Shown piece by piece: positions 5,321 through 39,821 of a stretch of 64,000 nt of DNA. The notes beneath the pieces were generated by a model. It was not told where the DNA came from. It was given only the letters and a program-made list of their open reading frames with translations, and did not search any database. Position 1 is the first letter of the stretch; every line of letters begins with the position of its first letter. Source of the stretch: Burkholderia pyrrocinia (lineage in GTDB: Bacteria; Pseudomonadota; Gammaproteobacteria; Burkholderiales; Burkholderiaceae); contig NZ_CP024902.1 of the NCBI RefSeq assembly GCF_003330765.1, positions 1,240,001 to 1,304,000 of the forward strand, in the 5' to 3' direction. The position numbers and the translations under genes are program-made.

Positions 5321-5609
5321 GGGTGGTTCGTTTGCGTTTTTCGTGAAGCACCTGTGATGTTGTCGGTCTATTAGCGTCGCCCCTGCGCGGGGCGGCGGTT
5401 ACTTTTCTTTGTCTTGCCAAAGAAAAGTAACCAAAAGAAAGGCGCCGTGAGAACGCATGACTTCCCGGTGCCGTGGCCATCTGAGTGGATCGCACCTAAG
5501 TGTCCGCGCCAGTCAGGAATCCGGAGTGGTTCGAGCAATGGTTCTGATGCATCGCACCACCCGACGGAGCGGTATACCGCCCGCTGGCTCCATCCTCGCT
5601 ACGCTCGGC
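5321..5609 (+). repeat. Left arm of a 289-bp inverted repeat
   Basis: This stretch is repeated in inverse orientation at 5898-6076 joined to 7429-7538. Both arms are 289 bp long once the insertion sequence and one target copy are removed. The outer about 120 bases are almost identical; the inner part differs more (for example ATCTGAGTGG against TTCTCGGAGTGG). It includes a GC-rich block at 5371-5397 and the 14-bp-stem hairpin at 5398-5431. No credible gene is present: the open frames are short and overlap both arms. The next gene upstream ends ten bases before it. Confidence 0.9.
5398..5431. repeat. Perfect hairpin inside the left arm
   Basis: GTTACTTTTCTTTG and CAAAGAAAAGTAAC form a perfect 14-bp stem with the six-base loop TCTTGC. 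The same unit recurs inverted at 7428-7461. The motif is AT-rich in a GC-rich setting and recurs in Burkholderia-type genomes to my knowledge; a terminator role for argR is possible but unproven. Confidence 0.85.
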
Positions 5610-7428: not shown

Positions 7429-7538
7429 TTACTTTTCTTTGGCAAGACAAAGAAAAGTAACCGCCGCCCCGCGCAGGGGCGACGCTAATAGACCGACAAC
7501 ATCACAGGTGCTTCACGACAACAGCAAGCGAACCACCC
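7429..7538 (-). repeat. Right arm of the inverted repeat, outer part
   Basis: This is the near-perfect reverse complement of 5321-5430. With 5898-6076 it rebuilds a 289-bp arm. It contains the inverted copy of the 14-bp-stem hairpin (7428-7461) and ends about 135 bases before the astC start. Confidence 0.9.
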
Positions 7539-7589
7539 AAACCCCCCGGGACGGCAAAATAAAGCGCACTATCCGCTTCCGATAGAACC

Positions 7590-31681: not shown

Positions 31682-34600
31682 TTACGCATCCGTGCGCGTG
31701 CCGGCATCGGGGCCGCGGCGTTCGAACCAGCCGCGCACGCGGCGCGCGAGCGAGTCGAAGCCGAGGTAGATCACGGGCGTCGTGAACAGCGTCAGCACCT
31801 GCGACACGATCAGGCCGCCGGCGATCGCGATCCCGAGCGGCTGGCGCAGCTCGGAGCCCGCGCCGGAGCCGACGATCAGCGGCACCGCGGCGAGCAGCGC
31901 GGCCAGCGTCGTCATCAGGATCGGCCGGAAGCGCAGCAGGCACGCCTGGTAGATCGCCTCGCGCGGCGGCTTGCCTTCGACGCGTTCGGCCTCGAGCGCG
32001 AAGTCGATCATCATGATCGCGTTCTTCTTCACGATGCCGATCAGCAGCACGATGCCGATGATCCCGATGATGTCGAGGTCGTGCCCGGTGATCATCAGCG
32101 CGAGCAGTGCGCCGACGCCGGCCGACGGCAGCGTCGACAGGATCGTGATCGGGTGGATGTAGCTCTCGTACAGCACGCCGAGCACGATGTACATCGTGAT
32201 GACCGCCGCGAGGATCAGGAACAGCTGGTTCGACAGCGATGCCTGGAACGCGAGCGCCGCGCCCTGGAAGCGCGTCTGGAACGACGCGGGCAGGCCGATG
32301 TCCTTCTCGGCGGCCTCGATCGCCTTGACGGCCTCGCCGAGCGACGCGCCGGGCGCGAGGTTGAACGAGATCGTCGTCGACGGGAACTGCGACAGGTGCG
32401 CGACCAGCAGCGGCGACGGCCGCTCGTGGAACGACGCGATCGACGACAGCGGCACCTGGCCGCCGCCGGCCGACGGCAGGTAGATGTCGTTCAGCGATAG
32501 CGCGTAGTGCTGCTCCTTCGGCTCGGACTCGAGAATCACACGGTACTGGTTCGACTGCGTGAAGATGGTCGACACGATGCGCTGGCCGAACGCGTCGTAC
32601 AGCGCGTTGTCGACGGTCGCCGGCGTGATGCCGAAGCGCGCGGCGCTCGCGCGGTCGATCTCGATGTAGACGGACTGGCCGCCGTTCTGCAGGTCGGTCG
32701 CGACGTCGGCGAGCGACGGCTCCTGCTGCAGCCGCGCGACGAGCTTCGGCACCCAGGTCGTGAACTCGCCGGGATTCGGGCTCGTCAGCATGAACTGGTA
32801 CTGCGTCGGGCTGACGGTCGAGTCGATCGTCAGATCCTGCACCGACTGCATGAACAGCGAGATGCCCGTGATGTTCGCGACGCGGTGCTGCAGGTCGCGG
32901 ATGATCTCGCTCGCGGTTTCCTTGCGGTCGTCGCGCGCCTTCAGGTTGATCAGCATCCGGCCGCTGTTCAGCGTGATGTTGCTGCCGTCGACGCCGATGA
33001 ACGACGTGAGGCTCTCGACGTTCGGATCCTTCAGGATCTCGGCCGCGAGCGCCTGCTGGCGCTCGGCCATCGCGCCGTACGAGATCGACTGCGGCGCCTG
33101 CGTGATCGCCTGGATCACGCCCGTGTCCTGCGCGGGGAAGAAGCCCTTCGGCACGTACACGTACAGCAGGCCCGTCAGAAAGAGCGTGAGCAGCGCGACG
33201 ACGAGCGTCGAGCGCTGGCGGTTCAGCACCCATTCGAGCGCGACCGCGTAGCGCGCGATCACCCAGTCGATCGCCCGGTGCACGCGCGCCTCGAAGCGGT
33301 GGCTCTCGGGCGGCGGCGAATGGCGCAGCAGCTTCGCGCACATCATCGGCACGAGCGTGAGCGACACGATCGCGGAGATCACGATCGTCACCGCGAGCGT
33401 GATCGCGAATTCATGGAACAGGCGCCCGACCACATCGCCCATGAACAGCAGCGGAATCAGCACCGCGATCAGCGATACCGTCAGCGAGATGATCGTGAAA
33501 CCGATCTGCCGCGAGCCTTTCAGCGCGGCCTCGAGCGGCGCCTCACCTTCCTCGACGTAGCGCGCGATGTTCTCGATCATCACGATCGCGTCGTCGACGA
33601 CGAAGCCGGTCGCGATGGTGAGCGCCATCAGCGACAGGTTGTTCAGCGAGAAGCCGGCCATGTACATCACCGCGAGCGTGCCGATCAGCGACAGCGGCAC
33701 CGACAGGCTCGGGATGATCGTCGCGTAGATGTTCGCGAGGAACAGGTACATCACCAGCACGACGAGCCCGACCGAGAGCAGCAGCTCGAACTGCACGTCG
33801 CGCACGGCGGCGCGGATCATCGTCGTGCGGTCGGTGACGATCTGCACGTCGAGCGCGGCCGGCAGCGTTTCCTGGAGCTTCGGCAACTGCGCCTTGATCG
33901 CGTCCACCGTCTGGATCACGTTCGCGCCGGGCTGGCGCTGCACGTTCAGGATGATCGCGGGCTCCGAATTCACCCACGCGCCGAGCTTGGTGTTCTCCGA
34001 GCCGGCGACGACCGTCGCGACGTCGGTCAGCATCACCGGGCGGCCGCCCTTGTACGCGACGACGGCGCTGTTGTACTGGTCGGCGCTCGTGAGCTGGTCG
34101 TTCGCGTTGATCGTGTACGCGCGCGTCGGGCCGTCGAAGTTGCCCTTCGGCGTGTTCACGTTCAGGTTCGAGATCGTCGTGCGCAGGTCGTCGAGGTTCA
34201 TCCCGTACTGCGCGAGCGCGGTCGGGTTGGCCTGGATGCGTACGGCCGGGCGGTTGCCGCCCGACAGGCTGACGAGGCCGACGCCCGCGATCTGCGAGAT
34301 CTTCATCGCGAGGCGCGTGTCGGCCAGGTCCTGCACCTGCGTGAGCGGCAGCGTCTTCGACTTGACGGCGAGCGTCAGCACCGGCGCGTCGGCCGGGTTG
34401 ACCTTCGCGTAGATCGGCGGGGCAGGGAGGTCGGACGGCAGCAGGTTGCCGGCCGCGTTGATCGCGGCCTGCACTTCCTGTTCGGCGATGTCGAGCGGCA
34501 GGTCGAGCGAGAACTGCAGCGTGATCACCGACGCGCCGGCCGAGCTTTGCGACGACATCTGGTTCAGCGACGGCATCTGCCCGAACTGCCGTTCGAGCGG

Positions 34601-34795
34601 TGCGGTGACCGACGAGGTCATCACCTCCGGGCTCGCGCCCGGGTAGAAGGTCTGGACCTGGATCGTCGGATAGTCGACTTCGGGCAGCGCGGCGAGCGGC
34701 AGGAAGCGCAGCGCGACGAGACCGGCCAGCATGATCGCCGCCATCAGGAGGGCGGTACCGACCGGCCGGAGAATGAAGAGGCGGGATGGGTTCAT
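31682..34795 (-). CDS. mdtB: RND multidrug efflux transporter, MdtB type
   Basis: The 1037-residue pump subunit is a paralogue of the next gene: [23 protein letters not shown] at TM1, [43 protein letters not shown] with the paired Asp residues of TM4, and VPMMCAKLL at TM6. Length matches E. coli MdtB (1040), with no insertion. It follows mdtA by 15 bases. The MdtBC heterotrimer exports bile salts, novobiocin and similar compounds in E. coli; the substrate range here is unknown. Confidence 0.93.
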
Positions 34796-34810
34796 CGAGC
34801 GGCCCGCGCG

Positions 34811-36169
34811 TTATTGGGCCGCTGCTTGCGACGCGCCGTGCTGGTGCCCGCCGCGATGGCCGGCGGTGCCCGATGCACCCGACGCGGCGCCGGCGCCGTG
34901 CGCGCCCGATGCGCCTTTCGGCTTGTCGGCCGGAATCGAGATCTTCGCGCCTTCGCGCAGGCGGTCGGAGCCGTCGGTCACCACGCGCTCGCCGAGCGCA
35001 ATGCCGCTGACGATGCTCGTGCGTTCGCCGTCGACCGGGCCGGGCGTGACCTTGCGTACCGTCACCGTGTTGTCGGGTTTCACGACGTAGACGAACTGGC
35101 CGATCGAGCCCGTCAGCACGGCGGAGGTCGGCACGATCGTCGCATTGCGCATCACGTCGACGAGCAGCCGCGTGTTGACGAACTGATTCGGGAACAGCAG
35201 GCCGTCCTTGTTATCGAAGCTCGCGCGCAGCTTGACCGTGCCCGTGCTCGTGTCGATCTGGTTGTCGAGCGTCGCGAGCGAGCCCGTCTCGAGCGGCACC
35301 GTGTTGTTGCGGTTGTACGCGGTGACCGACAGCTTCTGGCCCGCGTTCACCTGCTTGAGGATCTGCGACAGGTTGTCTTCCGACGTCGTGAAGATCACGC
35401 TCATCGGCTGCAACTGCGTGATCACGACGATGCCGTTGGTATCGCCCGGCGTCACGTAGTTGCCGGGGTCGACCTGGCGCAGGCCGACGCGGCCCGATAC
35501 CGGCGCCGTGATGCGCGCATACGTGAGGTTCAGCTTCGCGGAATCGATCGCGGCCTGGTCGGTCTTCACCGCCCCTTCGTATTGCTTGACGAGCGACGCC
35601 TGCGTATCGACGGTTTGCGACGCGATCGAGTCCTGCGACAGCAGCGTCTGGTAGCGCTTCAGGTCGAGGCGGGCCGTCGCGAGCAACGCCGAGTCGCGCG
35701 CGTGCGTGCCTTCTGCGTTCTCGAGCGACACCTGGTACGGGCGCGGGTCGATCTGCGCGAGCACGTCGCCTTTCTTGACGATCTGGCCTTCCTGGAACGA
35801 GACCGACTGCAGGTAGCCCGACAGTTGCGTCTTGACCGTCACGTTCGCGAGCGGTGTCACGGTGCCGAGCGCAGACAGCACGATCGGCATTTCGCCCTGC
35901 GTCGCGGCCGCGACCTGCACGGGCTGCGGAACGTTCGCCATCGCGGCGGGGCCGCCGCGGCCGCGATGGCCGCCGGTGCCGCCGCTGGCACCACCGACGG
36001 CGCTTGCGCCGGTCGCAGCGCTGCCTGCCGCCGGCGTGCGGTTCCACGGGTGCCACCACAGCAGGCCGCCAATGACGACGACCGCGAGCGTCCCGACCAG
36101 CAGCGTGCGACGCGGGCGCCGTGCGGCAGGGTCCTTCGAAGGGGGCGTGGGCTTTTGTTGGTTGTCCAT
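34811..36169 (-). CDS. mdtA: Membrane fusion protein, MdtA type
   Basis: The 452-residue periplasmic adaptor has an N-terminal membrane anchor (about 22-42; TLLVGTLAVVVIGGLLWW), a lipoyl half (TVTPLANVTVKTQLSGYLQSVSFQEGQIVKKGDVLAQIDP), a coiled hairpin (about 150-210) and beta-barrel/membrane-proximal parts (ITAPVSGRVGLRQVDPGNYV). Both ends are unusual: a Gly/His/Arg-rich spacer at about 60-80 and a Gly/Ala/His-rich tail after 415 with HRGGHQHG. The gene leads mdtABC on the minus strand, 255 bases after an IclR-family gene. It should link MdtBC to an outer-membrane channel encoded elsewhere. Confidence 0.92.
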   Translation of the reverse strand: MDNQQKPTPPSKDPAARRPRRTLLVGTLAVVVIGGLLWWHPWNRTPAAGSAATGASAVGGASGGTGGHRGRGGPAAMANVPQPVQVAAATQGEMPIVLSALGTVTPLANVTVKTQLSGYLQSVSFQEGQIVKKGDVLAQIDPRPYQVSLENAEGTHARDSALLATARLDLKRYQTLLSQDSIASQTVDTQASLVKQYEGAVKTDQAAIDSAKLNLTYARITAPVSGRVGLRQVDPGNYVTPGDTNGIVVITQLQPMSVIFTTSEDNLSQILKQVNAGQKLSVTAYNRNNTVPLETGSLATLDNQIDTSTGTVKLRASFDNKDGLLFPNQFVNTRLLVDVMRNATIVPTSAVLTGSIGQFVYVVKPDNTVTVRKVTPGPVDGERTSIVSGIALGERVVTDGSDRLREGAKISIPADKPKGASGAHGAGAASGASGTAGHRGGHQHGASQAAAQ

Positions 36170-36424: not shown

Positions 36425-37249
36425 TTACATGCTGACGCGCCGGGCCGGTGCGCCGCCGATCTCGCGGGTGATTTTCGCGATGCATTCGTGCAGCGCGGGC
36501 ACGACGTGTTCCTGCAGCCATTCGGGCGGGCACTGGTGCGACGCGCCGCCGCAATTCACCGAATAGCGCTGGCCCGACGGGCCGACGAAACCGGCCGCGA
36601 CCGCATTCAGGCCCTCGCGCCATTCGCCGATCGCGATCGCGTGGCCTTCGCGCATCGCGTCATCCAGCGCGGGGTTCAGGCGCGCGGACACATGCGGCCA
36701 GTCGTCGCCCGCCGTGGTGCGCAGCGATTCGAGCAGCAGGCGGCGCTCGTCGTCCTCGAGTGCGGCGAGATAGGCGCGGCCGACGGCCGTGCGCGCGATA
36801 TCCATCCGCGAGCCGATTTCGAGGCGCGTCACCAGCACGGCCGAGCGTGGCCGGATCACGTCGATCGCGACCATGTCGAGCCGGTCGCGCACCGCGAGGT
36901 GCACGGACAGCGACGTGCGTTCGGCCAGCTCGATCATGAATGGCCGCGAACGCGCGCGGATGTCGAAGTTGCGCAGGAAGCCGTGGCTCAGTTCGAGCAC
37001 CGATGCGGTGAGCACGAAACGCTCGCTGTCGGGCAACTGGAACAGGAAGCCGGCGCTGACGAGCGTCGCGGTGATGCGCGAGACGGTCGGCTTCGGGATG
37101 CCGGTCAATTCGGTCAGCTCGCGGTTGCTGACAGGCGCGTCGGCAGCTGCGATGCGGCGCAGCACAGCGAGGCCGCGGGCGAGCGCGGTGATCTCGTCGG
37201 GCGATGATTCGCGTTCCCGCGGCACGGGAGGAGTTACAGTGGTCGACAC
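36425..37249 (-). CDS. IclR-family transcriptional regulator
   Basis: The 274-residue protein has an N-terminal winged helix-turn-helix (about 20-80; ALARGLAVLRRIAAADAPVSNRELTELTGIPKPTVSRITATLVSAGFL) and a C-terminal effector domain (about 90-265; ERTSLSVHLAVRDRLDMVAIDV, ARTAVGRAYLAAL, GEWREGLNAVAAGFVGPSG). It lies upstream of mdtABC in the same direction. It could repress the pump, but IclR proteins usually act on catabolic genes and the target is not proven. The minus strand before it has TTGACA at 37304-37309 with no good -10, and an imperfect palindrome (CGAAACTCGATTTCAG, 37268-37283) that could be an autoregulatory site. Confidence 0.88.
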   Translation of the reverse strand: MSTTVTPPVPRERESSPDEITALARGLAVLRRIAAADAPVSNRELTELTGIPKPTVSRITATLVSAGFLFQLPDSERFVLTASVLELSHGFLRNFDIRARSRPFMIELAERTSLSVHLAVRDRLDMVAIDVIRPRSAVLVTRLEIGSRMDIARTAVGRAYLAALEDDERRLLLESLRTTAGDDWPHVSARLNPALDDAMREGHAIAIGEWREGLNAVAAGFVGPSGQRYSVNCGGASHQCPPEWLQEHVVPALHECIAKITREIGGAPARRVSM

Positions 37250-37435
37250 GAAGGATTCTCTCTATTTCCGAAACTCGATTTCAGTTTTGTTGGTATTGTA
37301 GGACTATTGTCAAAAGATGCATGTTCCGCGGGAGAACCGGTCATTCGATGAGATTTTGCGGGTTCACCCTTGGTTTATTAGGAAAACCCTCAAATGAGCG
37401 TTGCCAGAAAGTGCATGGGCCGGTGCAAATACCGC

Positions 37436-37464
37436 TTGACTTGTCGGGCGGAAACGGAAAGAAT
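37436..37464 (+). promoter_or_regulatory. Strong sigma70-type promoter of a candidate small RNA
   Basis: TTGACT (37436-37441, five of six) and AAGAAT (37459-37464, four of six) are 17 bases apart. No + strand gene follows for 4.4 kb, but a structured region with two terminators begins seven bases later, so a short transcript from about 37471 is predicted. Confidence 0.55.
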
Positions 37465-37530
37465 GTCTCACGTTTTCGAAACATCGTTTCAGGAGTTTAA
37501 CCGGCAACGATGTTTCGCGCAGTCTCTCAG

Positions 37531-37567
37531 GTTCTAGCACGGCCCTCGGAATGGCTAGAACTTTTTT
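37531..37567 (+). terminator. First terminator of the candidate small RNA
   Basis: An 8-bp perfect stem (GTTCTAGC/GCTAGAAC) with a 15-base loop is followed directly by six T. Confidence 0.65.
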
Positions 37568-37568
37568 A

Positions 37569-37599
37569 GCGCCACGGTCTCCGTGGCGCTTTTTTTTTT
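37569..37599 (+). terminator. Second, very strong terminator of the candidate small RNA
   Basis: GCGCCACGG, TCT and CCGTGGCGC form a perfect 9-bp GC-rich stem with a three-base loop, followed by ten T. It is a textbook intrinsic terminator on the + strand. Confidence 0.9.
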
Positions 37600-37720
37600 G
37601 CCCGCCTTTTGCCCGTCCGCCCGGACGTGTCAGTCCCGTATTATCACCCGACCGTTGAAAACGCCCGTCCGACCCTCGGCGGAGTATGCATCGCGCGCGA
37701 TACGCGAGATTCGTACGCGC

Positions 37721-37755
37721 AAAAAAAGGCGCGACGCCCGCACTGGGCATCGCGC
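37721..37755 (-). terminator. Terminator downstream of the PhoX-family gene
   Basis: On the minus strand GCGCGATGCCC pairs with GGGCGTCGCGC (one G-T pair) around AGTGC and is followed by CC and seven T. It is about 100 bases past the stop at 37857. Between the two, only GC-rich imperfect repeats of GGGGCGCC type are seen. Confidence 0.7.
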
Positions 37756-37856
37756 ATAAACCGGCGTGGAGCGCCGACGAATGAACGGTGATGAAGACAG
37801 GGGCGCCCGGCTAGGGACGCCCGGCCAGGGGCGCGAGCCCCCCTCGCGTGACCCGG

Positions 37857-39821
37857 TCAGGCCTTCGCGAGCTTGATGCTGGTCTGCTCGGCCGTCAGGT
37901 AGCCGACGCTTGCGCCGAAGCGGTCCTTGAAGTTCGCGCGCACGAGCGGATCGAGCGTCGGCTTGACCTTGTCGTGCAGCGGCGATTCCCAGTCGCCCGC
38001 ATGCTGGAAGTTGCTCATGATGTACGTCCAGCCGTTGATCTCGTCGACCGCGTGCAGGCCCGTCGATTCGGCGCCGGCCGGGCACGACAGCACGCGCACG
38101 AGCGACTTCGTGTCGACGTTGTAGGCCCACAGGAAGTTGTTCACGTGCATGCCCGAGTCCTCGCCGATGAACAGCGTGCGCAGCTTCTCGGAGAACTTCA
38201 GGTTGTCGGGGTTCGCGATCTTGTCCGGGTTCGCGAGGTTGCCGAGCCCGTCGGCCGCGGCGAGATCCTCGCCGACGAGCGCGGCCGGCGCACCCATGTC
38301 GACCGGCACCCATTCGCTGTCGATCGCGCCGCCCGTCGTGTCGCGCTGGCTGCCCTTCAGGTTCAGCGCGTAGACGGCGCCCGCGGCGATCTTCTTGTCG
38401 ACCGCGACGTCGCGCGACACCGCGTTGCCCTTGACCATCGACGTCTCGATCCGCGACATCGCCGTGTAGACGATCTTGTCCTTCGCGTTCACGGTCGTGC
38501 CTTCGAGCTTCGTGAAGCCCATGCTGCCGCCGAGCAGCGCCGCGTAGCGGTGCGTCTCGAGGAACGCGGCCGCTTTTTCCATCCCCGGCTTCACGCGCAT
38601 CCAGTTGAACTTGCCGCCGAAGTGGATCTTCGCGTAGCTCGCATCGTTCGGGTCGGTGGTCGTCAGGTCCATGATGTCCGACGCCTTCAGCGTGTTCGCG
38701 AGCGCTTCGATCTCGCTGCTCGTCGCGTGGCCGATCCTGATCCACGTGAGCGTCGCGGTGCCCGCACCGGCCGACGACGTCTGGGCCCACTTCGCGACGT
38801 ACAGCGTGCCGGCCGACAGGTCGGCTGCCTTGTCGGCGACGAACATGAACAGGCCGCCGTTGGTTGCGTCGTCACCCATCATCACGGTGCGCTGGTCCGG
38901 CATCACCTGGATCAGCTCGTGCGAGATGCGGCCGAGGCAGTAGTGCTTCTTCACGGTGCCGGTGCCGTCCGCGTTCACGGTGATCTCGGGCAGGTGGCCG
39001 TAGTGGTAGGGGTTCGCCTTCGTCTCGTCGCCGAACGTGTTCTTGCTGAACGCCTTGAACTGCGCGTCGGTCGCGACCTTCGTCGCGTCCGGCTCGTACT
39101 CCTCGCTCGACAGGTGCGTGCCCCACGGCGACAGGCTCGCGCCACAGGTGATCCACAGACCGTGTGCCTTCGACGTATCGACGTTGTGGTACTTGACGAC
39201 CTTCAACGCGCCGTTGGCCGGATCCTGGTCGAGCGTGAGCACCGCGATCGGCGACGGCAGCTGGCCGTACTGCGATGCGCTGGCCTGGTCGCGCGTCGTG
39301 TATTCGAACTGCACGACCGCGAACACCGTGTTGCCCTTCACGCCGGGCACGTTCGCGTTCTTCAGCGTGAGCAGCGAGCTGCCGTCCGGGCAGTCGGAAT
39401 AGAACTGGCGTTCCTTGCCGGCTACCGAACGGTCGATGATCGGCTGGTTGTTGATGTCGTAGTAGCCGCCCGCGAGCGTCGTGCCGCCCTTGCCGTCCGG
39501 CACCATGTCGCCCGTCACGAAGAACGGCCGGTACGCCAGCTTGAAGTTGCGCGCCGAGCCGTCCGAGAACGACACCGACAGCGTCGAGCCAACCGTCGTC
39601 GTGGCCATCGCGGCCGCATTGTCGAGCGTGGGCGCGGCCATCGCCGAGAACGTCGCCGACGTATACGCGGCGGCAACCGGGGCCGGCGTCGATGCCGGAC
39701 TGTCGTCGCCGCCGCAACCCGTCAGCAGGGCCGGCAGCGCGAGGCCGGAAAGGGGAAGCATCGGCGCACCGGCGAGGAACTTCAGGGCCTGACGACGGGA
39801 AGCATTGGGCAACGCGGGCAT
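37857..39821 (-). CDS. PhoX-family (DUF839) exported phosphatase-like protein
   Basis: The 654-residue product starts with a twin-arginine signal (ASRRQALKFLAGAPMLPLSGLALPALLTGCGG). The LTGC at its end makes it a possible lipoprotein as well. The body has the beta-propeller pattern of PhoX/DUF839 proteins: GLWITCGASLSPWGTHLSSEEY, HYGHLPEITVNADG, HYCLGRISHELIQVMPDQRTVMMGDD and IGEDSGMHVNNFLWAYNVD. PhoX enzymes use calcium and iron and remove phosphate from esters; whether this one is an active phosphatase is open. ATG 39821 was chosen to fit the Tat signal (39878 would add 19 unlikely residues). The gene is single, with its own terminator. Confidence 0.85.
   Translation of the reverse strand: MPALPNASRRQALKFLAGAPMLPLSGLALPALLTGCGGDDSPASTPAPVAAAYTSATFSAMAAPTLDNAAAMATTTVGSTLSVSFSDGSARNFKLAYRPFFVTGDMVPDGKGGTTLAGGYYDINNQPIIDRSVAGKERQFYSDCPDGSSLLTLKNANVPGVKGNTVFAVVQFEYTTRDQASASQYGQLPSPIAVLTLDQDPANGALKVVKYHNVDTSKAHGLWITCGASLSPWGTHLSSEEYEPDATKVATDAQFKAFSKNTFGDETKANPYHYGHLPEITVNADGTGTVKKHYCLGRISHELIQVMPDQRTVMMGDDATNGGLFMFVADKAADLSAGTLYVAKWAQTSSAGAGTATLTWIRIGHATSSEIEALANTLKASDIMDLTTTDPNDASYAKIHFGGKFNWMRVKPGMEKAAAFLETHRYAALLGGSMGFTKLEGTTVNAKDKIVYTAMSRIETSMVKGNAVSRDVAVDKKIAAGAVYALNLKGSQRDTTGGAIDSEWVPVDMGAPAALVGEDLAAADGLGNLANPDKIANPDNLKFSEKLRTLFIGEDSGMHVNNFLWAYNVDTKSLVRVLSCPAGAESTGLHAVDEINGWTYIMSNFQHAGDWESPLHDKVKPTLDPLVRANFKDRFGASVGYLTAEQTSIKLAKA

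What the first reader, a model, noticed from the sequence alone, without database searches (positions are those of the whole stretch)
37436..37599. Unannotated structured small RNA with own promoter and tandem terminators
Seen: TTGACT-17-AAGAAT, then a 12-bp perfect hairpin with an AGGAG-bearing loop, then two intrinsic terminators with T6 and T10. All signals point to the + strand, while the genes on both sides lie on the minus strand and no + strand gene is near (previous end 28206, next start 41969). Two terminators with nothing coding before them are best explained by a short non-coding transcript of about 97-129 bases. The loop GGA could bind CsrA/RsmA or an mRNA; that is speculation. I do not recognise the family.
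Basis: partly seen in the sequence, partly recalled or inferred. Interest (0 to 1): 0.8.

Follow-up and report, generated by a model that had tools for sequence, protein, structure and literature searches.

The report
Known small RNA ncS54, IclR-linked
This stretch encodes ncS54, a small regulatory RNA already known from Burkholderia; comparing many relatives shows that it is paired with a neighbouring regulator gene and that its front end is held shut by an RNA stem, which suggests what switches it on and which part of it acts.

Summary
Window 37520-37597(+) is Rfam RF02871, ncS54 (110.5 bits, cut-off 43). New here: (1) An IclR-family gene stands head-to-head with ncS54 in 112 of 119 primary loci read. 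A palindrome of IclR group-2 type sits at the RNA's start in 143 of 148 loci with that gene and 0 of 8 without. (3) The AGGAG loop is not conserved, so CsrA/RsmA binding is unsupported; CUCUCAG and the loop GCCCUCGGA are, and both survive a wholly different stem in one distant copy. The IclR gene is probably bapR, a published biofilm regulator, suggesting, untested, that BapR acts partly through ncS54. Targets remain unresolved.

The parts
37471..37598 (+). ncS54 primary transcript, 128 nt (start and end inferred from the published J2315 length and the sequence)
   Evidence: Published length 128 nt; -10 ends at 37464; fold z -5.9
37520..37597 (+). match to Rfam RF02871 ncS54 (conserved core)
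   Evidence: 110.5 bits, gathering 43, E 1e-25; only match in its genome at E<=0.001, 150 of 1507 candidates scored
37436..37464 (+). sigma-70 type promoter TTGACT-17-AAGAAT
   Evidence: a promoter of this form recognised in 160 non-redundant loci and not in 5 others
37478..37490 (.). IclR-type operator GAAAC-N3-GTTTC, +8 to +20 of the transcript; also most of the 5' arm of the hairpin
   Evidence: fits group-2 IclR consensus (PMC8222616)
37270..37282 (.). second operator, upstream of the IclR gene (GAAAC-N3-ATTTC)
   Evidence: motif within 80 bp of the iclR start in 145 of 164 distinct loci, reversed control 0
36425..37249 (-). divergent IclR-family regulator, probably BapR
   Evidence: PF09339 and PF01614; upstream of ncS54 in 112 of 119 primary loci read
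37477..37488 (+).
37506..37517 (+). 3' arm of the clamp stem
37518..37528 (+). single-stranded linker ending in CUCUC, proposed seed 1
   Evidence: Mean unpaired probability of the 6-nt seed 0.99 in Burkholderia; CUCUCAG exact in 19 of 25 aligned copies (my count)
37529..37563 (+). core hairpin with conserved loop
   Evidence: stem sequence replaced but pairing kept in L404 and L429
37542..37550 (+). loop motif GCCCUCGGA, proposed seed 2
   Evidence: CCCYCG in 25 of 25 aligned copies, GCCCUCGGA exact in 20 of 25 (my count)
37568..37599 (+). intrinsic terminator with T10
   Evidence: published 3' end

Best explanation
The element is ncS54, a trans-acting, probably Hfq-type small RNA. Shown by comparison: it has its own conserved promoter; an IclR-family gene is divergently linked to it in five GTDB genera; an IclR-type palindrome sits at the RNA's start and near the regulator's own start; the RNA's 5' end pairs with the bases just before the seed, so that the transcript is a closed 5' clamp, a single-stranded CUCUC linker, a hairpin with a GCCCUCGGA loop and a terminator with a U-tail. 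Inferred: the IclR protein represses ncS54 by binding over its start; the clamp protects the 5' end and keeps the seed exposed; the two C/U-rich elements pair with Shine-Dalgarno regions of mRNAs and lower their translation. The IclR protein is probably BapR.
For: RF02871 110.5 bits. Published 128-nt RNA, more than one Northern band put down to alternative TSS, 3.1-fold up in biofilm and 2.0-fold in starvation. IclR adjacent in 112 of 119 primary loci read, in 0 of 11 second copies. Of 20 genomes searched, the seven with an orthologue (E 3e-110 or better) all have it beside ncS54; the six with ncS54 but no adjacent gene have no such match anywhere (best E 4e-9 to 3e-44). Operator 143 of 148 with iclR, 0 of 8 without; in those eight GRAAY is gone from all, while TTTCG of the transcribed half, which forms the clamp, stays in 7. 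Clamp: mean duplex energy -10.35 against -7.43 kcal/mol for swapped partners over 160 loci, 0 of 2000 permutations as good; within Paraburkholderia and Caballeronia 0 of 5000 each; energy peaks at the core boundary (4-nt steps). Loop and CUCUCAG survive a wholly different stem in L429.
Against: No expression, binding or target data could be produced here. BapR was reported not to regulate its own promoter, which does not sit easily with an operator there. 5 of 148 loci with iclR lack the strict motif, each by one substitution. In Burkholderia alone the clamp stem does not covary and in Trinickia the permutation result is weak (87 of 5000). In 27 of 84 Paraburkholderia and 9 of 39 Caballeronia loci the clamp has fewer than 5 pairs in the MFE fold. 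In 22 of 87 long leaders a terminator-like hairpin lies between promoter and core, so there the core may need a second promoter. L404 and L410 lack CUCUCAG. Seed-complement counts do not settle targets. Permutation and Fisher tests treat related loci as independent.
Confidence: 0.72

Rival explanations
1. The 12-bp inverted repeat is a DNA element only: two IclR operators 26 bp apart bound by a tetramer; the RNA hairpin is incidental.
For: The 5' arm is a perfect, nearly invariant palindrome while the 3' arm drifts, with mismatches in some species; the 3' arm is itself one change from the motif; IclR proteins often bind tandem sites (PMC8222616 passages).
Against: The published preferred spacing is 18-22 bp between centres, about three or four turns less often. 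Outside Burkholderia the leader is 49-263 nt and the two arms covary as an antiparallel RNA stem within genus. Loci without iclR keep the pairing (L051, L055-L057, L071, L127, L180, L208: -8.0 to -14.7 kcal/mol).
Confidence: 0.12
2. The IclR gene and ncS54 are neighbours by descent only; the operator serves iclR autoregulation and has no effect on ncS54.
For: Linkage can persist without regulation; IclR proteins may control their own genes (cited in PMC3962473).
Against: A separate operator overlaps the ncS54 start and is missing from the 8 loci without iclR although their promoter is kept; autoregulation of bapR was tested and not seen in H111.
Confidence: 0.12
3. The loop GGA is a CsrA/RsmA binding site and the RNA titrates that protein.
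For: GGA is present in the window's loop and in 13 of 24 distinct Burkholderia leaders.
Against: The other 11 of 24 lack it, and leaders of other genera share no such loop. A single GGA would be a weak sponge (general knowledge).
Confidence: 0.02
4. The region is a 5' leader or attenuator of a + strand gene rather than a free RNA.
For: Tandem hairpins with U-runs resemble attenuators.
Against: The next gene is on the minus strand; the published RNA ends at the terminator; the PhoX-like gene beyond the terminator was found within 1.5 kb in 27 of 41 Burkholderia loci and in none of the other genera.
Confidence: 0.01

Closest known systems
ncS54 (Rfam RF02871), B. cenocepacia J2315 (Sass et al. 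2017, PMC5688073)
   Same: Sequence and structure of the core, strand, length and 3' end; the window's RNA is this RNA in another strain or species.
   Different: Rfam models only the last 79 nt; the IclR operator, the covarying clamp and the second copies are not in the sections of the paper read.
BapR, IclR-family regulator of B. cenocepacia H111 (PMC3962473)
   Same: IclR family, Bcc-wide; of 17 IclR-family matches in this genome with a readable start (18 in all), only the window's gene is compatible with the published early-stop position in J2315; biofilm theme shared with ncS54.
   Different: Identity not proved by sequence here; no operator and no small RNA in the passages and section part seen.
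Double-hairpin RNAs ncS03/05/27/62 (RF02278)
   Same: May work alike: two hairpins, C/U-rich stretches complementary to ribosome binding sites, several copies per genome.
   Different: No match to this family; different seeds.
ncS25 (RF02869) and mmgR/suhB (RF00519)
   Same: Weak matches, mostly to the terminator and U-run.
   Different: 24.4 and 22.7 bits, below the cut-offs 46 and 41.

Membership tests
ncS54 RF02871 | covariance-model score above the gathering score over the full model | tested here: met
   110.5 bits vs 43, model 1-79 of 79
ncS54 RF02871 | length and 3' end of the published RNA | tested here: met
   37471-37598 is 128 nt and ends in the U-run, as published; J2315 DNA itself was not at hand
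ncS54 RF02871 | expression as a free small RNA in this strain | not testable with these tools
   no RNA data for the window's strain
IclR group-2 operator (TGRAACAN1-2TGTTYCA) | palindromic half-sites with the stated arrangement | tested here: met
   GAAACATCGTTTC and GAAACTCGATTTC against the consensus in PMC8222616; outer T and central bases deviate
IclR group-2 operator | bound by the IclR protein | not testable with these tools
   only co-occurrence: 143/148 with and 0/8 without the gene
BapR | same gene as CCE51534 of H111 | tested here: inconclusive
   no H111 or J2315 sequence at hand; the published early-stop position fits 1 of 17 readable IclR-family matches of this genome, the window's gene
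Double-hairpin RNAs RF02278 | match to the family model | tested here: not met
   no match up to E 1 in 37200-37900
CsrA/RsmA-binding RNA | conserved GGA in the loop of the 5' hairpin | tested here: not met
   GGA in 13 of 24 distinct Burkholderia leaders (AGGA 11, GGA 2), 11 lack it

The most novel reading that the evidence does not exclude
ncS54 is the effector arm of BapR: an IclR-family repressor devoted mainly to one small RNA, so that the published biofilm, motility, protease and persister phenotypes of bapR mutants run in part through derepressed ncS54. The RNA is an older Burkholderiales regulator defined by two anti-SD elements (CUCUCAG and a GCCCUCGGA loop) on a freely changing scaffold, to which a covarying 5' clamp that doubles as half of the repressor's operator was added in the lineage of Burkholderia and its closest genera.
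Probability: 0.3. Interest if true: 0.65.

Novelty: already known. Interest (0 to 1): 0.42.

Why it matters
The RNA is catalogued, but in what I could read nothing was said of what controls it or which parts act. The comparison names a regulator, an operator, a structural clamp and two conserved pairing elements, each testable with one experiment. If the regulator is BapR, a published transcriptome of its mutant already exists in which ncS54 can be looked up, and J2315, where ncS54 was discovered, carries an early stop in bapR, so its ncS54 level may not be typical. One short sequence, TTTCG, serves at once in the DNA operator and in the RNA stem; loci that lost the regulator separate the two roles.

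Tried and rejected
Consensus scans as evidence: not above chance. Wider regulon of the operator: GAAACNNNRTTTC has 21 distinct sites in the own genome (14 forward and 16 reverse matches, control 3 and 4); gene contexts showed no clear further regulon. Targets: CCTGAGAG-N3..11-ATG gives 12 sites against 1 for the reversed pattern in the own genome, but 11/4, 9/10 and 6/5 in three others. GAACCTGAGAG occurs 65 times in 14 genomes against 10 for the reversed pattern and 9 for a matched pattern keeping GAGAG, whose own reversed form gives 3. Of 63 distinct contexts read, 14 were flagged as ncS54-like genes (one, L383, doubtfully) and one of the other 49 (L360) proved to be a further copy. Markov models expect 8-17 for it; for the three controls they expect 4-6, 2-3 and 9-18 against 9, 10 and 3 seen, so the models miss both ways. 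The excess may be real, but I claim no target. Candidate leaders seen: in the own genome a YqiJ-type membrane protein, a 167-aa protein without Pfam match and a transporter that looks like MFS by eye; elsewhere a porin, a KDPG aldolase and a short-chain dehydrogenase. Weak family matches outside the group: of 16 order-level genomes outside the family with a match, 8 places were read and only L429 has seed and loop; the five g3 and g11 places read are terminators without seed or loop. Covariation inside Burkholderia: none significant. The MAFFT alignment A1 misplaces L404 and L429 by one base in the 3' arm, so pairing was read from the sequences one by one. Parts used: 119 primary loci were fetched of 131 genomes over the cut-off (12 not fetched). 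Rows dropped: 5 loci without a recognised promoter (L060, L088, L161, L192, L239), 4 too close to a contig end for the iclR test, L118 from the core set because the helper found no 9-pair arm, and L126, near-identical to its neighbours, from alignment A1 (25 of 26 used). Genus labels rest partly on leader features. The inferred start of L051 is doubtful.

Full report
What is there. Consensus scans alone are at chance level (1 promoter against 0.7 +/- 0.8, 10 terminators against 7.0 +/- 2.8), but the 128-nt strand folds far better than its shuffles (-51.2 kcal/mol, z -5.9, 0 of 200).

It is a known RNA. Rfam places RF02871 ncS54 at 37520-37597(+), 110.5 bits with a gathering score of 43, the only match in the genome at E<=0.001. 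That the window's RNA has the same ends is inference, since J2315 DNA was not at hand. A full-text search for ncS54 found 8 papers, of which only this one, by its listed title, is about the RNA; a search for RF02871 found none.

Distribution. At family level 144 of 299 genomes match at E<=0.001, 131 above the family's cut-off, in 8 of 25 genera. At order level 20 of 300 match, 5 above the cut-off: four belong to this family and one (G489, locus L429) to another. Several genomes have two to four matches; the own genome has one.

What is conserved. Primary copies share CUCUCAGGUUCUAGCACGGCCCUCGGAAUGGCUAGAAC almost without change (whose printout was cut in the middle). Second copies and distant copies change the stem and keep the pairing (GGUUCUAGC/GCUAGAAC, GGUUCUGGC/GCCAGAAC, GUUCGUCGU/GCGACGAAC in L404, AGCCUACCGUC/GACGGUAGGUU in L429). 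In 25 aligned copies, 8 of them primary, CUCUCAG is exact in 19, GCCCUCGGA in 20 and CCCYCG in all 25 (my count). L404 and L410 have lost CUCUCAG. So the unpaired elements, the loop above all, look functional rather than the stem letters. The U-run after this hairpin is six in 23 of 24 distinct Burkholderia loci but in only 2 of 136 others, so this is probably not a first terminator.

A linked regulator. The minus-strand gene at 36425-37249 is an IclR-family regulator (PF09339, PF01614), below the cut-off of all 8 NCBIfam models listed. Its homologue stands divergently upstream in 112 of 119 primary loci (my count of the list), in 0 of 11 second copies; the PhoX-like gene beyond the terminator was found within 1.5 kb in 27 of 41 Burkholderia loci and in no other genus. 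In 20 genomes searched, seven have an orthologue (65-95% identity, E 3e-110 or better) and all seven lie beside ncS54; six have ncS54 without an adjacent gene and no such match elsewhere (best E 4e-9 to 3e-44); the seven others have neither an orthologue nor an ncS54 match above the cut-off. The match list was capped, but the best E per genome was given.

An operator. Across genera the ncS54 promoter reads TTGACTT-(about 17)-AAAAAT followed at once by GRAAY-N3-RTTTC. In Burkholderia the perfect palindrome GAAACATCGTTTC lies about 13 bp further on, at +8 to +20. The motif lies within 80 bp of the iclR start in 145 of 164 distinct loci; the reversed motif there, and the motif in the 90 bp beyond the RNA, give 0. 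It fits the group-2 IclR consensus TGRAACAN1-2TGTTYCA of PMC8222616 (abstract and passages). Among 160 non-redundant promoter-bearing loci 4 were undecidable; of the rest 143 of 148 with iclR have the strict motif and 0 of 8 without it (Fisher 1.8e-10). The five exceptions each differ by one base. The eight span at least two genera and need not be independent losses. In them GRAAY, the untranscribed half, is gone from all, while TTTCG of the transcribed half stays in 7 of 8 and strict RTTTC in 3, which points to a second, RNA-level duty of that half.

The clamp. That duty is the stem. In each locus I took the first 16 nt of the inferred transcript and the 18 nt ending two bases into the core. 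Own partners bind at -10.35 kcal/mol on average, swapped partners at -7.43, 0 of 2000 permutations as good. Within Paraburkholderia (84 loci) and Caballeronia (39) 0 of 5000 permutations reach the own value; Trinickia (13) 87 of 5000; Burkholderia (24) 1068 of 5000, being nearly invariant. In 4-nt steps the energy peaks at the core boundary (-10.4), is -5.8 at 8 nt and about -5 from 16 nt upstream. Examples: TTCGACC with GGTCGAA (L055), TTCGGC with GCCGAA (L061), CGATTG with CAGTCG (L195). The leader between the start and the core ranges from 47 to 263 nt. In the MFE fold the clamp has at least 5 pairs in 24 of 24, 57 of 84, 13 of 13 and 30 of 39 loci of Burkholderia, Paraburkholderia, Trinickia and Caballeronia; the 6-nt seed is unpaired with mean probability 0.79-0.99. 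Within Burkholderia its own pair counts are no better than shuffled, and the AGGAG of its loop is not conserved.

Probable identity of the regulator. BapR of B. cenocepacia H111 is an IclR-family protein found throughout the Bcc, needed for maximal bapA expression and biofilm, and affecting motility, protease and persisters; 253 genes changed in its mutant, its promoter was not autoregulated, and J2315 carries an early stop (PMC3962473: passages, and part 1 of 2 of the Results and Discussion). The published stop position fits the window's gene and none of the 16 other IclR-family matches in this genome whose start could be read (18 matches in all, one unreadable); the 66 Burkholderia-like copies read, partly duplicates, agree at that residue. 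This is suggestive, not proof. If right, ncS54 was discovered in a strain without working BapR. Searches for IclR with Burkholderia, small RNA and operator (3 papers), for IclR/KdgR with sRNA-promoter terms (26 papers, 15 listed) and for BapR (5 papers) showed, in their listings, none that joins the two; all searches here were limited to open-licence papers.

Mechanism proposed. IclR/BapR binds over the start of ncS54 and represses it (inferred). When released, the RNA is made; its 5' end is sealed by the clamp, leaving CUCUC single-stranded before the loop hairpin and a U-tail suited to Hfq (inferred from general knowledge of such RNAs). CUCUC and CCCUCGG are complementary to Shine-Dalgarno-like GAGAG and GAGGG, so repression of translation is the likeliest action. 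Attempts to name targets were inconclusive.

Noticed in passing
window 5321-5408 (-) and 7451-7547 (+): Two matches to Rfam RF02421 (Bp1_684, Burkholderia sRNA), 59.2 and 58.2 bits, on opposite strands about 2 kb apart.
   Followed up: no
L055-L058, L061-L068, L071, L162, L178, L180, L208, L209, L253, L266 among others (leaders): 22 of 87 leaders of 90 nt or more carry a terminator-like hairpin (often ACCCCGCAAAATTGCGGGGT then TTTAAT) between the IclR-type promoter and the ncS54 core: a possible attenuator, with a second promoter feeding the core.
   Followed up: partly
   Followed up: partly
L036 and L109: The linked IclR gene has an early stop in these two relatives (codon 212 and codon 78 as read).
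   Followed up: no
L042-L050, L129, L130, L360, L399, L400, L402, L404, L410: Second copies of ncS54 in other genomes, with seed and loop kept in most; no IclR neighbour in the eleven tested (L042-L050, L129, L130).
   Followed up: partly
window 31682-36169 (-): An RND efflux cluster (ACR_tran and HlyD-type proteins) follows the IclR gene on the same strand; whether the IclR protein controls it was not tested.
   Followed up: no
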